From Macrocystis pyrifera (lineage: Eukaryota; Sar; Phaeophyceae; Laminariales; Laminariaceae): a stretch of 64,000 nucleotides of DNA. Where the stretch lies: positions 5,241,397-5,305,396 of the forward strand of contig JASSKH010000012.1 in NCBI GenBank assembly GCA_031763025.1. The letters are read 5' to 3'. The position numbers were made by a program, and so were the translations under genes. A model generated the notes under the pieces. It did no database searches. It had not been told where the DNA came from and saw nothing but the letters and a program-made list of their open reading frames with translations. Shown piece after piece: positions 5,816-63,480 of this stretch (the first letter of the stretch is position 1; the number at the start of each line of letters is the position of its first letter).

Positions 5816-6790
5816 CATGACATCGAATATGATATCGGTCTGTCGACATATTGTGTAGGGTCTGTCTGGCATCGAAACGTTACAACACGCATATAGAGTA
5901 CTGGCGCAGAGCCGAACAGAACAGGCTAACGTCTTGGTAACGTCTTGTTTTGTTCATCATACTCAGATGTCGTGTCGACACTGAAAAGTTCCGATACATG
6001 TAAACGTCCAAACCTTCACCCTTCGACAGATTGCTCAGTCTACCGATCGCCATAGCGTTACAAGACGTACAGCAGTATGAAGCACCGAGAGGAAAAGGCA
6101 ATTTATCAAGTTTCGCACTCAACTAGTCGTGGATACGATTATCGAAGCTTGTAAGCTTGGAGATCGATAAGAGATTGGATATCGCAACAAAACTTCACAG
6201 TTCCGATACATTCAAAACGGATAATATTGCATACTCTATGTATATGTTCGTATCGGATGGAATGCGTTTCGCCGATTATCCAAACGTGTGTAATGTTGAT
6301 AGTAGCACGAAGGGGGAAGAGAAATCGGTGTACTACTGATGGATATCGCATTGAAAAATTGAAGAACAAAAACGATACGTGCTGGTATGCTATATCGAAA
6401 CATTTGATCTCGAGTTAGAAGGCGCATTGCTCTCGATGCCCTCGCATCTCCCCTATTGCATACCTGGTATTATGTAAAATGCTGAACAAAAATCTCAGGT
6501 TTTGACGCGCACTTCATTGATACCGTATCGATTTGAATCCTCGTCTATGAAAATCGTTTTAAAAACAAAAAATGGTTTTCTACGATCTTTTTCCGATATC
6601 GGATCGATTTGATCGTTCACTCATCGATATCGTATCAAGCTTGAATCTATATTTTAACCATATATATTGGTATCCAATAGATTCTTCGTTTATCAATACC
6701 GTATCGATTTTGCTCTTCGCTTATCGATATCGTATCGATTCGATTCTTCGGTTGTCGATATCGTATCGACATCGATTATTTTTCGACACA
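5816..6790. repeat. Degenerate GATATCGTATCGAT array
   Basis: Short units containing ATCGATATCGTATCGATT or GATACCGTATCGATT recur from about 5820, densest at 6590-6780, where they are spaced roughly 35-45 bp apart. The same word family returns at 19600-20110. The motif is self-complementary at its core (ATCGAT, GATATC). Confidence 0.75.
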
Positions 6791-7929
6791 CATGCCTCGT
6801 TGGCATACAATAAGGACGACAACATCGTACCTGGTACATTTTTTTCCCAGAGTTTCAGATGTTTTCGAGTTGTGAATTCCGTACCAGGTATCACGATACG
6901 GAGGCGTTCTCCCACAATTTGTGGATATCAACAAAGGACAAAGTTTCTGGAAGCCCCACCAATAACATATTTGAAAACAAAAAAGAAAAAATGGAAAAAA
7001 AAAAATGGAAATTGAGAACAAAAAGGACCATTCGACAAGCAGAAACGGGTCCCAACATTGACACATAGACACAGAGCCAAACACAAAAAACAAACAAAAA
7101 ACAGAAGTTGCGCTTCGCCGACAGGCCAAACTGACTTTCCATCAACTCAGACTAGCAGATAATCGGTTTTTGAATCTCAACTGCTACCTGGTACGGTGAA
7201 ACAAAGTGGCCGAAAAAACAGCACCCGCTGTAAAAATGCAGGGGGGGGTACATTGTTTTTTGAGTCCATCTGCCGGTTCTACCTACTATTATACTACGAG
7301 TACCGTGCACCCGATGATACAATGCTGCAGCATCCTGGCACGTACGTATCCGGTACCCGGTGCACACCAGGGTGAGGGTGTGTGTTTGCTGCGTGTACCT
7401 ACCTGTGCTGAAAAAAAAATGATTTCATCGACGCATTACATCGAACCACTCCGGACTGCTGTAGACGGAAATTCGCACAAGGAAATTCTTTACAGAAACA
7501 TCGAGACCAACCGGTGTTTACATCCCCGTCGCAGGTGTCTACAGCTTACAGCGGTGCTGTCCTACGCTGCACGCACGCACAGCAGCACCGCTCAGAGGAT
7601 GCTGTGATGCAAAACACGGAGAGGCGTTATCTTTTGCATCAGAACGCTTATTCGAATCGGACATCACAAAAAAAATCGCGAAACGAAACGAAAAACAACA
7701 ACAACAACATTGGCAACAACACCCGCGAAGTGGTGAGTGTCGGAACATGATTTCGCCTCGGGAGAGCTTTTAGTTTGGTTCTCGGTTGGCGGGGGGGGGG
7801 GGGGTCCCGGGGGGTCCCCTTTTTGTTCAGAGTTCTTTGTTGCTGCACGTTTTTCCTGCACAGTTTACCCTCGAATAATCTAGCCACCCGACGCGGGCGC
7901 GCCGCGCACACACACAGGTGGAGCGGGGC
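6791..7929. other. Stretch without a supported gene
   Basis: Carries exact TACCWGGTA motifs at 6828, 6882 and 7185 and small A, G and AAC homopolymer-like tracts. No exon-like block with splice sites was seen. Confidence 0.45.
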
Positions 7930-8149
7930 TGGTCAAAATGCATTTGCAACTGCATCTACGATATGTTGGGGGAAACAAAACGTACATTCACGGAACTAGA
8001 GTAAACATGCTTTGCACTGCAGCAAAAAGTACACGGGACCTCAACCGTTCTACAACGAACCCACATGTTGCATGCCACTACGTCAAGGTTCCGGGTTGAG
8101 GGACGGTTTCCATTACTAAAAAAAGGGCCAATAACCACGTTAGGGCAAA

Positions 8150-8350
8150 TCGCAGATCCCGAATTTGGGACAAATCACTCCAATTCCAAGTATGACGGGG
8201 GATCATAGTAAATGGGACCAAATTTTGTTAGTAAAAATAGGAAAATATGTAGGTTTTTTGTGCGTACCGCAGGTGCTATTTACTATGGTCCTCCGTAATA
8301 ATTCGTCCCCAAACGGGACTCCGGTACAAAATGCTTGATTTAACCCTCTT
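8150..8350. mobile_element. MITE family 2 copy split by a MITE 1
   Basis: Left part (about 8158-8190, through CTCCAATTCCAAG) and right part (from 8302, TTCGTCCCCAAACGGGACT) match the intact family-2 element at 44432-44530. The 111-bp family-1 copy sits between them at a TA. The right terminal AAGGGTTAA-type end is eroded. Confidence 0.7.
8191..8301 (-). mobile_element. MITE family 1 copy inside a MITE 2
   Basis: Inverted termini are TGACGGGGGATCATAG and CTATGGTCCTCCGTAA. Removing it with one TA restores the family-2 sequence around CCAAGTAATTCGTCCCC, which supports a TA target duplication. Confidence 0.85.
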
Positions 8351-8419
8351 GAAACTTTTGAGGGAAAAACTTGACCGTAAAAAAATCAAGACCAACAGCA
8401 ACCGTCACGGCGCGATCGG

Positions 8420-8545
8420 GGCAAGATGGGATGCTACGGTTGATGTCCGAGCTACAATGGTTAAATGCAACGGCTCGCACGGCACGAGCGCAACGGCATT
8501 CTGGTGAGTCCCGCACTGCTGGGCGCTCACTCACGCGGCCAGCCC
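8420..8545 (+). repeat. Dispersed repeat C copy
   Basis: Shares GTCCGAGCTACAATGGTT and the CACGGCACGAGCGCAAC...CTGCTGGGCGCTCAC succession with copies at 11085-11225, 25372-25545 and 45425-45545. Confidence 0.65.
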
Positions 8546-8790
8546 TTGGAATGTCGATGCCGGCAATCCCATCATCGTCCTGATCGATATCGAGGACTTG
8601 TCATATGCCTCTTTGCAACTGTATCAGCATCTAACAACGTTCTGACCTTCAAAACCCGCGGAATCAAGAGTCGGAATACCTCGCCGCCGTAAAACGTATA
8701 CATCCGTTTTACACGGAACCCGCACGTTGAACAAAACTGCTTGTACTTTTGTGTTGGAACGCCTTCCAGCACCCCGAACAAAGGATCACC

Positions 8791-8898
8791 ATTACGGGGG
8801 GTCCACAGTTCATAGGACCTATGGTGTACATAGAAACCTATATGTTTACTTATTATTACTAACAAAATTTGGTCCTGTTTACTATGGCCCACCGTAAA
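8791..8898 (+). mobile_element. MITE family 1 copy
   Basis: Complete inverted termini; left end TTACGGGGGGTCCACAG, right end ACTATGGCCCACCGTAA. Lies within the 7.9-9.9 kb tandem array. Confidence 0.9.
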
Positions 8899-61741: not shown

Positions 61742-61978
61742 ACCTGATGACTGACTCCTCGCTGGTCTCGTAGGGTAGTACTATAAGGAATGACTGGGTC
61801 TTCGCTTGTTCCAGGGTTACGATAAGCTGGAATGACTGAGTCCGCGCTTGTTCCAAGAAGGGTGCATATCCGGAGCTGAAGTAACTAACTGCTGTGTCCT
61901 CGCTTGTCCCAAGGGTACCAGGAGGAGCTGATGTAGCCGAACCCCCGCTTGTCTCGAGGCTCAAGGCGGTACCTGGTA
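61742..61978 (-). repeat. About 48-bp tandem repeat with open minus frame
   Basis: Five degenerate units each contain TCNTCGCTTGTCCCAAGGG or similar. The minus strand is open through all units (EDTAVSYFSSGYAPFLEQ, then ARTQSFQLIVTLEQAKTQSF), giving an LEQA(K/R)TQSF repeat. It ends near the solo LTR. Confidence 0.65.
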
Positions 61979-61997
61979 AGTAAAACAAATATTGTGG

Positions 61998-62269
61998 TTT
62001 TAAAATCAAGCATGCGGGACACTTTATATCCCAGGGCAGGTTGCTTATTAAGTAGGTACTCGTTGGTACTCACGTGTGATGCTTGCCTAGAGACCGAAGA
62101 AGAGCAGTTTTATTCATTTCGTGCACGTGGAGACTGAGACCACAAGCTCGTGCGTCTCTGGTTTTCCACCTACAATACGCCTTCCAAGTACTACAGATAC
62201 GTTCCCAGTGCCTGAACCCGGGTAATTACCGGGCTTTCAACCTTGTACAAAGCAGTATCTATCATAACA
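61998..62269 (-). mobile_element. Solo LTR
   Basis: Homologous along its length to the LTRs at 30392 and 31845 (GAAGAGCAGTTTTATTCATT, GGTAATTACCGGGCTTTCAA). No second LTR or interior was found on either side, consistent with recombination between LTRs. The left end is eroded. Confidence 0.8.
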
Positions 62270-62416
62270 ACAGTAGAATAGTCGATCAGGGCAGTGGGTT
62301 TGTTCAATTTTGGGTTCCTATTTGATATTACGTCACTATACGAGAAAATGCTCTTTTTGTATATTTTACTTGCATTATTCAAAGTAACAATCTATACTCA
62401 GATACCTGGTATGTGA

Positions 62417-62757
62417 TTTTTTTTTTTTTTTTTTTTTTTTTTTTTTATCCATCACTGTTGCTTCCCAGCCCACTCGTAGGAGGTTTTACCCTCGACGATC
62501 TTCTGGACAAGCCGTGGTCACAGGTGTCGTCCTTTCTCCGCCCCGGTACGTGCCTTTAGTTTTTATCGCGCATAGGGTTCAGCATTCCCACTGCTCGTCG
62601 ATTTTCGTCGAATGTAGCCAACTCACGCTTTCGCGCTTTCCGCTTATCAATTTTTTATGCAAGAAAAAGTCCCTATGAGCATGCACTCGGTGGGACTTGA
62701 ACCCACGAAATTGATCTTGACAGGCACGCGGATCACCAACCAAGCCACAGGGGACGC
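62417..62757 (-). mobile_element. tRNA-derived SINE, copy B
   Basis: Same structure as copy A: 30-nt A-tail (T run on plus), common body and tRNA-like head. The T-arm is perfectly paired here (GTGGG/CCCAC around TTCAAGT). A 17-bp insertion near 62579-62595 distinguishes it. The tail lies next to TACCTGGTATGTGA. Confidence 0.82.
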
Positions 62758-62759
62758 CT

Positions 62760-63480
62760 GAGGTAAGGGCGAGGTAGTGTGAGTGATATACTGCTGTACA
62801 TACAAGCAGTAGGAAGAGTTGCGCGAAGCACCACAGAAACACAGGAGGCCAGTAAATTGACATGTTTGACAGACGACACGAGTCGGGAATGAAGCACAGA
62901 GTAGCGATCTTGCTGCGCGTATATCCATATATAGCACGGGAGCCTGGAGACGCAGAGAAGAGAAGATAAAAAAAGAATAGAAAAGCGCAAACCATGAAGA
63001 CCTCAACTATTAATAACAACCTTGTGATGCCAACGCCCGACAACATCTCCAATCAAGCAATAGAGCAATCAATCGATCAATGGGAGGCGTCGACACGTAT
63101 CAGACAACCAATCAACAATCACTCAATCACGTTGTTGGTGTCGACACACAAGTCAATCAACCAATCAACAGCAGACTGTCTGTGTAGTGTGTGTTCTTCA
63201 CATTAAGCAGGTTTTTCCACCCGCCGATATCCACCACAAGTACAGTAGCAGTGTCCGTGCCGATTCTTCAATCCTATTAATAGAGAGATACCAGGTACAA
63301 GTTCTGTGGTAACGAAACTACGCCACAGAGATATTATTAATATTAGCATTCGTTTTACTATGCAGAAGCAGACTACTGCTAGCAGCTGTAGACACAACAA
63401 TGCAATGCCATGTCATCCTACCGAATACGACAGGCACGGCATACACATTCTATGAAACAGAGAAAACAAAAGTGAAGAGG
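62760..63480. other. Stretch without a supported gene
   Basis: Contains AATCAATC-type low-complexity words at 63050-63170 and exact TACCAGGTA at 63288. Confidence 0.45.

What the first reader, a model, noticed from the sequence alone, without database searches (positions are those of the whole stretch)
6461..63296. TACCAGGTA/TACCTGGTA (TA-CCWGG-TA) is extremely over-represented and looks like a transposon scar
I count about 28 exact copies (for example 6461, 6828, 6882, 12452, 18732, 35047, 37441, 38771, 46930, 52594, 57649, 63288); one 9-mer and its complement are expected about 0.5 times in 64 kb. The word is TA, a 5-bp palindrome with an ambiguous centre (A or T), then TA. TA-targeting DNA transposons of the Tc1/mariner group leave exactly this architecture on excision (Sleeping Beauty scars are TAC(A/T)GTA). 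The hypothesis is that the motif is the excision footprint of a TA-specific element whose ends begin CC(A/T). Alternatives are a protein-binding site or a CCWGG methylation-linked word.
Basis: partly seen in the sequence, partly recalled or inferred. Interest (0 to 1): 0.85.

Follow-up and report, generated by a model that had tools for sequence, protein, structure and literature searches.

The report
Transposon excision scars across kelp genome
A nine-letter DNA word is scattered through this kelp-like genome far more often than chance allows; it looks like the scar left each time a jumping gene cut itself out, although the jumping gene itself was not found.

Summary
The window has 28 exact TACCWGGTA (0.6-1.2 expected). 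The 537-Mb genome it lies in, most likely giant kelp Macrocystis pyrifera (inferred), has 121,279, against 2,421 for the reversed word.

The decisive test compares copies of repeats. In 27 copies of one repeat, read by eye, the TA at window 63289 is plain TA in 16, TA-CCAGG-TA in 1, TA-CCTGG-TA in 2, a shorter relic in 3, and lost in 5. Sites in two other repeats agree. So the word is a 7-base insertion at TA.

Scars sit inside scars 5,620 times; 2,018 of these are in opposite orientation, which slippage cannot make. Targets show a mirror-symmetric preference. A second scar-like word, TA-CAGCAG-TA, has 59,709 copies against 1,062.

Best reading: excision footprints of a TA-specific cut-and-paste transposon with about 5-base staggers; the Tc1/mariner footprints in passages I read are at most 4 bases. 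No source element was seen and no transposase could be tied to the scar. Insertion at TA is shown; excision is inferred.

The parts
6461..6469 (-). TA-CCWGG-TA scar
   Evidence: exact word
6828..6836 (-). TA-CCWGG-TA scar
   Evidence: exact word
6882..6890 (+). TA-CCWGG-TA scar
   Evidence: exact word
7185..7193 (-). TA-CCWGG-TA scar
   Evidence: exact word
10372..10380 (-). TA-CCWGG-TA scar
   Evidence: exact word
12452..12460 (+). TA-CCWGG-TA scar
   Evidence: exact word
18732..18740 (+). TA-CCWGG-TA scar
   Evidence: exact word
21164..21172 (+). TA-CCWGG-TA scar
   Evidence: exact word
27878..27886 (-). TA-CCWGG-TA scar
   Evidence: exact word
35047..35055 (+). TA-CCWGG-TA scar
   Evidence: exact word
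36170..36178 (+). TA-CCWGG-TA scar
   Evidence: exact word
37121..37129 (-). TA-CCWGG-TA scar
   Evidence: exact word
37441..37449 (+). TA-CCWGG-TA scar
   Evidence: exact word
38771..38779 (-). TA-CCWGG-TA scar
   Evidence: exact word
39089..39097 (+). TA-CCWGG-TA scar
   Evidence: exact word
39860..39868 (+). TA-CCWGG-TA scar
   Evidence: exact word
43248..43256 (-). TA-CCWGG-TA scar
   Evidence: exact word
44541..44549 (-). TA-CCWGG-TA scar
   Evidence: exact word
46733..46741 (+). TA-CCWGG-TA scar
   Evidence: exact word
46930..46938 (+). TA-CCWGG-TA scar
   Evidence: exact word
47141..47149 (+). TA-CCWGG-TA scar
   Evidence: exact word
52594..52602 (+). TA-CCWGG-TA scar
   Evidence: exact word
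53568..53576 (+). TA-CCWGG-TA scar
   Evidence: exact word
56380..56388 (-). TA-CCWGG-TA scar
   Evidence: exact word
57649..57657 (+). TA-CCWGG-TA scar
   Evidence: exact word
61970..61978 (-). TA-CCWGG-TA scar
   Evidence: exact word
62403..62411 (-). TA-CCWGG-TA scar
   Evidence: exact word
63289..63297 (+). TA-CCWGG-TA scar with empty-site comparison: plain TA in 16 of 27 repeat copies
43115..43124 (+). scar variant TA-CCAGGG-TA inside a palindromic repeat; no CCAGG at this place in the 17 other copies matched
   Evidence: (16 alignments)
2560..2568 (-). probable decayed scar TACCTGGCA; insertion relative to L011 and L022, by eye
63275..63282 (+). TA-TTAA-TA, a second kind of TA insertion in the same repeat copy

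Best explanation
Each TACCWGGTA is the excision footprint of a TA-specific cut-and-paste DNA transposon. Shown: at the sites that could be compared, the word is a 7-base insertion (5 bases plus a second TA) at a pre-existing TA. Inferred: an element inserted at TA and duplicated it. On leaving, it was cut about five bases inside each end, leaving overhangs of the sequence CCAGG (or CCTGG) on both flanks. The overhangs annealed by their outer CC/GG with an A:A or T:T mismatch in the middle, end joining sealed them, and the mismatch was resolved to A or T. Trimming of the ends gives shorter relics (CCAG, CTGG, CG). The element left far more scars than copies of itself, so it was either very mobile at low copy number or is now nearly extinct. 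Scars are new targets, which gives scars within scars. Other words of the same build (TA-CAGCAG-TA, TA-TTAA-TA, perhaps TA-CGAG-TA) would be footprints of other elements with other ends.
For: 50-fold genome-wide excess. TA flanks specific. Plain-TA sites in homologous repeat copies: 16 plain, 3 full (CCAGG once, CCTGG twice) and 3 shorter, of 27 (read by eye); further sites in that family, in a palindromic repeat and in an L019/L022/L011 family. Scar-in-scar 5,620 against 0 for the control: 1,409 and 609 in the two opposite orientations, 3,602 same by subtraction. Target preference differing from other TAs, and alike on the two sides when scars are oriented by CCAGG: purine at -1 in 79% and 85%, A at -6 in 48% and 51% of 63 scars. 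Flanks of the 28 window sites are not alike in register, apart from neighbouring sites whose windows overlap and a 27-base match of 44541 with 62403 made of the word and a T run. A second word of the same build, 59,709 against 1,062. Footprint logic (overhang plus duplicated TA; C(A/T)GTA for Sleeping Beauty and Frog Prince) in passages of PMC7827188 and PMC3878927. Another brown alga, Ectocarpus, carries 17 Mariner-Tc1 families with almost 12,000 copies (PMC12477816 passages).
Against: No element with such ends in the 264 kb and 20 short loci: of 297 TACCWGG...CCWGGTA pairs the best (14 of 15 inner bases) is a run of scars, the next (11 of 15) low-complexity, then two at 10 of 15. PF13358 gave 0 matches (control rang); PF01359 gave 0 with a silent control. 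The 39 PF03184 matches could not be linked: seven loci scanned showed no TA-flanked inverted ends beyond a few 12-of-16 pairs, none with CCWGG. A 5-base inner part lies outside the range (0-4) in the passages read. In an unbiased list of 142 small insertions TA was no commoner as the doubled dinucleotide than TG (12 each). One outer TA is changed to TG or CA more often than the inner bases change, which simple decay does not explain. Same-orientation doubles (3,602) exceed what random re-insertion predicts (about 2,018).
Confidence: 0.75

Rival explanations
1. A protein-binding site or regulatory word kept by selection.
For: The arms are palindromic, the inner CCWGG is better conserved than the outer TA, and the word is genome-wide.
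Against: Related repeat copies differ by a clean 7-base insertion with the TA doubled, in both orientations, plus trimmed forms; a selected site would more simply arise by substitution. 121,279 copies and 5,620 doubles sharing a TA do not suit a binding site.
Confidence: 0.06
2. Tandem-repeat slippage or micro-duplication spreading a 7-base unit.
For: 3,602 of 5,620 doubles are in the same orientation, more than random re-insertion predicts.
Against: Doubles are few beside 121,279 sites (4.6%); 2,018 doubles are in opposite orientation, which slippage cannot produce; inserts appear at TA sites whose relatives hold no CCWGG.
Confidence: 0.04
3. Scars of programmed or host-driven excision (a domesticated transposase cutting out many TA-bounded segments in each life cycle), not of a free transposon.
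For: Scars outnumber any candidate element in the sample. The genome has a family of DDE_1 (PF03184) genes; of seven translated, they look split by introns and two (L045, L047) seem by eye to lack one catalytic aspartate.
Against: No such process is known to me in brown algae (recalled). The DDE_1 genes were not tied to the scar. The 47 larger insertions between copies were only looked over by eye, so TA-bounded segments missing from some copies are not excluded.
Confidence: 0.08
4. Remains of miniature elements shortened by internal deletion to their two tips (CC...GG), not excision products.
For: Tip-only remnants would have the same build; trimmed forms CCAG and CTGG exist.
Against: Deletion should leave many lengths with more of each end; instead the 5-base form stands far above the shorter ones (63 CCAGG sites; 19 CCAG with 10.2 expected; 17 CCGG with 3.5 expected). 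The only longer continuation of TACCWGG seen twice, CCTGGGTTCAGGC, lies inside a longer repeat.
Confidence: 0.07

Closest known systems
Excision footprints of Tc1/mariner elements (Sleeping Beauty, Frog Prince: TA-C(A/T)G-TA)
   Same: A few terminal bases with complementary outer letters and an A/T centre between two TAs; plain TA before insertion (PMC7827188, PMC3878927 passages).
   Different: Five inner bases (six for CAGCAG) instead of three; seen as a genome-wide population of 121,279, not as products of an assay; the source element is unknown.
Rice Osmar5, bamboo Ppmar2 and Triticeae Stowaway footprints
   Same: Variable residues of the element ends between two TAs, several different footprints at one site, and re-insertion next to an old footprint (PMC1925063, PMC9632168 passages).
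   Different: 1-4 residual bases there; here 5 is the commonest form and shorter forms are a minority.
Minos footprint (TA-CGAG-TA), recalled, from no call
   Same: The word TACGAGTA/TACTCGTA is also in excess here (41 sites against 9.8) and would be the same kind of scar.
   Different: Another end sequence and 4 bases; no Minos-like element was looked for by sequence, and no empty site was seen for this word.
Mariner-Tc1 families of Ectocarpus (brown alga)
   Same: A TA-targeting superfamily, mostly short non-autonomous copies, in a related alga (PMC12477816 passages).
   Different: The words 'footprint' and 'excision' have 0 occurrences in that paper's main text; no link of those elements to CCWGG was tested.

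Membership tests
Tc1/mariner excision footprint | duplicated TA on both sides, plain TA at unoccupied homologous sites | tested here: met
   about five TA sites in three repeat families
Tc1/mariner excision footprint | inner bases with complementary outer letters and mismatch centre resolved either way | tested here: met
   A/T centre 64 sites, G/C centre 6; the same TA carries CCAGG in one copy and CCTGG in two
Tc1/mariner excision footprint | footprint of at most 4 element bases, as in the passages read | tested here: not met
   five bases is the commonest form; range from passages
Tc1/mariner excision footprint | an element whose inverted ends begin with the footprint bases | tested here: inconclusive
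   none in 264 kb nor around seven DDE_1 loci; the rest of the genome could not be scanned for it
Tc1/mariner excision footprint | matching DDE transposase in the genome | tested here: inconclusive
   PF13358 0 matches with a ringing control, PF01359 0 with a silent control, PF03184 39 matches not linked to the scar
Tc1/mariner target site | mirror-symmetric, AT-leaning preference around the TA (recalled as typical) | tested here: met
   differs from 28,104 TAs, strongest at -1, -3, -6, -7; left and right flanks alike in 63 oriented scars
Minisatellite or slippage unit | tandem same-orientation arrays | tested here: not met
   doubles are 4.6% of sites, 2,018 of 5,620 in opposite orientation

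The most novel reading that the evidence does not exclude
The kelp genome records on the order of 180,000 excision events at TA (121,279 CCWGG and 59,709 CAGCAG scars) left by enzymes with unusually long 5- and 6-base staggers, with few or no source elements remaining. This is either a burst-and-vanish mode of transposon life in which scars far outnumber copies, or a host-run excision process in brown algae.
Probability: 0.25. Interest if true: 0.9.

Novelty: new variant of a known kind. Interest (0 to 1): 0.7.

Why it matters
In the papers I saw, excision footprints are described a few at a time. A genome with 121,279 of one kind and 59,709 of a likely second kind would turn a vanished or very rare transposon into a measurable history: how often it jumped, where it landed, how breaks were repaired and how scars decay. 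Scars that outnumber elements would mean that copy counts underestimate cut-and-paste activity. A 5-base stagger at TA would widen the known range of such transposases. The scars can be counted in any kelp strain, so activity can be dated by comparing strains.

Tried and rejected
CCWGG methylation word or binding site: set aside because the word is an insertion. Slippage: set aside as main source because 2,018 doubles are in opposite orientation. From about 50 listed doubles I first thought that CCAGG-TA-CCTGG was very strongly favoured over CCTGG-TA-CCAGG, which would have suggested a longer element end; genome-wide the ratio is 1,409 to 609.

Element ends: 198 TA-flanked inverted pairs of 24 bases in 264 kb; the 60 listed are a palindromic repeat family (TATTACGGGGG...CCCCCGTAATA) and other repeats, none beginning CCWGG. 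297 pairs TACCWGG...CCWGGTA: nothing credible. 47 insertions of 40-9,000 bases between homologous copies, none with CCWGG ends by eye. DDE_1 genes (39 matches): 12 loci fetched, 7 translated and scanned, 5 only compared with a sixth (95-99.7% alike over the stretch, so no element edge could be seen). L046 and L048-L052 hold no scar and could not date activity. Pfam on 10 window frames: 0 families; on 10 sample frames: matches in 3 (retroelement domains in two, SH3 in one).

Literature: the lists (capped at 6 to 20 rows; one search lists 20 of 119 papers that hold the word TACCAGGTA) show no title that describes this word as a footprint; the search for TACCTGGTA with 'footprint' and 'transpos' found 0 papers. 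I saw passages only of PMC10498591, PMC7827188, PMC3878927, PMC7913693, PMC1925063, PMC3660474, PMC9632168 and PMC12477816. Never answered: genome-wide counts of TACWGTA and CTATTAATAG, and PF01498.
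Full report
What was checked. The window holds 28 exact TACCWGGTA, 16 as TACCAGGTA and 12 as TACCTGGTA. An order-2 Markov model expects 0.6 and an order-4 model 1.2. The window lies at C192:5241397-5305396 of a genome of 537,376,219 bases in 223 contigs, where the word occurs 121,279 times against 2,421 for the word read backwards. Size, contig number and a 26.5-Mb contig agree with the published Macrocystis pyrifera assembly (537 Mb, 223 contigs, largest 26 Mb; PMC10498591 passages), so I take the organism to be giant kelp.

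Is the TA part of it? The sample is 264,000 bases: the window plus the 20 stretches, chosen by coordinate, 13 of them on the same contig. In it (simple repeats masked) the flanks TA..TA around CCWGG occur 126 times of 1,134 on both strands, the next pair 26 times. Among fillings of TA-X-TA, CCAGG has 63 sites against 2.3 expected, second by ratio; the other fillings near the top mostly belong to a palindromic repeat family or are the same scar read with a neighbouring TA, with CAGCAG as the main exception (assignment by eye). The W in the centre is partly a tautology (reverse complement), but G/C centres are rare (6 sites against 64).

The empty sites. One scar, window 63289, lies in an old repeat with many relatives (3,756 candidates in the first look, 40 scored, 54 matches). 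I fetched 20 of the listed copies and added six from the sample and the window copy: 27 in all (states read by eye). At that TA, 16 copies have plain TA; one has CCAGG-TA (window); two have CCTGG-TA (L025, L026); three have shorter fillings (CTGG in L033, TTGG in L037, CG in L035); five have no TA at the place (L029, L041, L009 and two copies in L024). Divergent relatives (window 43,900 region, L017) are among the plain-TA copies, which favours plain TA as the older state. At a second TA of the same repeat, in the 20 of 27 copies where the stretch was matched, L033, L034 and L039 have CCAGG-TA, L016 has CCAGG-TG, and L041 has CCAG-TA; L042 (CCAGG) and L036 (CCAG) are seen in the longer alignment. 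At this second TA all fillings are in one orientation, so common descent of some is possible. A third TA has TA-TTAA-TA in 12 of 27 copies (twice in tandem in L032) and GACAG or GACTG in L034 and L039, against plain TA in seven, L029 among them.

Two more families agree. In a palindromic repeat, window 43115 carries TA-CCAGGG-TA; 16 alignments show the insertion, and none of the 17 other copies matched has CCAGG there (one, L016 1621, has TACCGGTA in that stretch). In a family shared by L019, L022, L011 and window 2.5 kb, L019 shows a CCTGG and a CCTTG insertion, and the window a CCTGG one with a changed TA (by eye). A result on the other side: in the unbiased list of 142 small insertions between copies, CCAGG accounts for two sites, CCAGGG for one and CCCGG for one, and TA is only joint first with TG as the doubled dinucleotide (12 each). 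So TA is not a mark of small insertions in general in this small set. Of the 64 scars in the sample, most could not be tested: only two had a usable paralogue alignment, one of them (L011 8481) without an empty site.

Scars in scars. TACCWGGTACCWGGTA occurs 5,620 times (control 0): 4.6% of all scars, whereas scar TAs make up 0.85% of TAs. By orientation: CCAGG-TA-CCTGG 1,409, CCTGG-TA-CCAGG 609, same orientation 3,602 by subtraction. Slippage cannot make the 2,018 of opposite orientation. If new insertions favour the TA preceded by CCAGG 2.3-fold, nested insertion alone predicts about 2,018 same-orientation doubles; the surplus of about 1,600 may be slippage or common descent.

Target preference. 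Compared with 28,104 TAs, the scars favour a purine at -1 (A 0.45, G 0.38; T only 0.07), A at -3 (0.44), A at -6 (0.50) and A/T at -7 (0.76) (127 half-sites). That count pools both sides, so it is symmetric by construction. When the 63 usable scars are oriented by CCAGG, the left and the reversed right flank show the same bias independently: purine at -1 in 79% and 85%, A at -3 in 43% and 44%, A at -6 in 48% and 51%, with purine on both sides in 43 of 63. A mirror-symmetric target fits a transposase acting as a dimer on TA (recalled, general knowledge).

Mechanism. Tc1/mariner-type excision leaves a few terminal bases as overhangs; their joining leaves overhang plus duplicated TA (PMC7827188 and PMC3878927 passages). 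Applied here, CCAGG or CCTGG overhangs pair by CC/GG around an A:A or T:T mismatch that resolves either way: the same TA carries CCAGG in one copy and CCTGG in two. Trimming gives the short forms. Residues in the passages I read are 0-3, 2-4 or 1-4 bases (PMC7913693, PMC1925063, PMC9632168), so a 5-base rule is outside what I saw in print. A second word, TACAGCAGTA, has 30,273 + 29,436 = 59,709 sites against 512 + 550 = 1,062; its inner part would be six bases with two mismatches. In the window the two mixed palindromic forms occur once each against 14. For this word I have no empty-site comparison: its one paralogue alignment showed none. TA-CGAG-TA, TA-TTAA-TA and TA-CCGG-TA are also in excess (41, 35 and 17 sites against 9.8, 4.6 and 3.5). 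Of these only TTAA was seen as an insertion; CCGG may be a CCWGG scar that lost its centre.

Where is the element? The sample has 64 scars and no credible element with such ends. Of 297 candidate pairs (sample plus the 20 short loci) the best is a run of scars, the next a low-complexity match, then two at 10 of 15 bases. The only continuation of TACCWGG seen twice, CCTGGGTTCAGGC, lies inside a longer repeat. Copy number is thus probably well below the scar number (inference). Transposase searches: PF13358 0 (3 candidates scored, control rang); PF01359 0, but the control was silent, so nothing follows; PF03184 39. I fetched 12 of these 39 loci. Seven were translated: they look split by introns, and two (L045, L047) seem by eye to lack one catalytic aspartate. 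Scanned for TA-flanked inverted ends, these seven gave only a few 12-of-16 pairs and none with CCWGG. The other five are 95-99% alike with a sixth over the whole stretch, so no element edge can be seen.

What does not fit. One outer TA is often changed to CA/TG (both-strand counts 26 and 18 against 5.2 and 4.3 expected), while inner C to T is at most 9 against 3.5. Copies ending in TG keep the purine-TA...pyrimidine flank; those with CA do so less clearly. The unevenness is unexplained. All presence/absence evidence comes from repeats within one genome, at about five TA sites of three families.

Noticed in passing
genome-wide; window 14 sites: TACAGCAGTA/TACTGCTGTA has 59,709 copies against 1,062 for the control: a second scar-like word; some copies in opposite orientation share a TA.
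   Followed up: partly
window 63275-63282; L032, L028: TATTAATA (often CTATTAATAG) is another insertion at TA, in 12 of 27 copies of one repeat and twice in tandem in L032.
   Followed up: partly
window, e.g. 8776-8899, 19271-19394, 20543-20666, 43060-43420: A palindromic short repeat (TATTACGGGGG...CCCCCGTAATA), many copies in 64 kb, perhaps a TA-inserted miniature element.
   Followed up: partly
window 39860-39868 and 62403-62411: Two scars lie just outside the T-rich edge of two copies of one repeat (94% alike), at different distances from it.
   Followed up: no
window 4257-4407, 10054-10136, 24580-24968: A run of 151 G, a run of 83 C beside a 100-base gap of N, and about 130 copies of TTA.
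   Followed up: no
L045-L056: A family of PF03184 (DDE_1) genes, seemingly split by introns, some copies inside large repeats with GGGTC units; may be domesticated transposases.
   Followed up: partly
scars in the 264-kb sample: One outer TA of the scar is changed to TG or CA more often than the inner bases change; unexplained.
   Followed up: partly
L013 8540-8968: A 429-base insertion with inverted ends (GTGCGTCTTAACCCCC...) inside a repeat.
   Followed up: no
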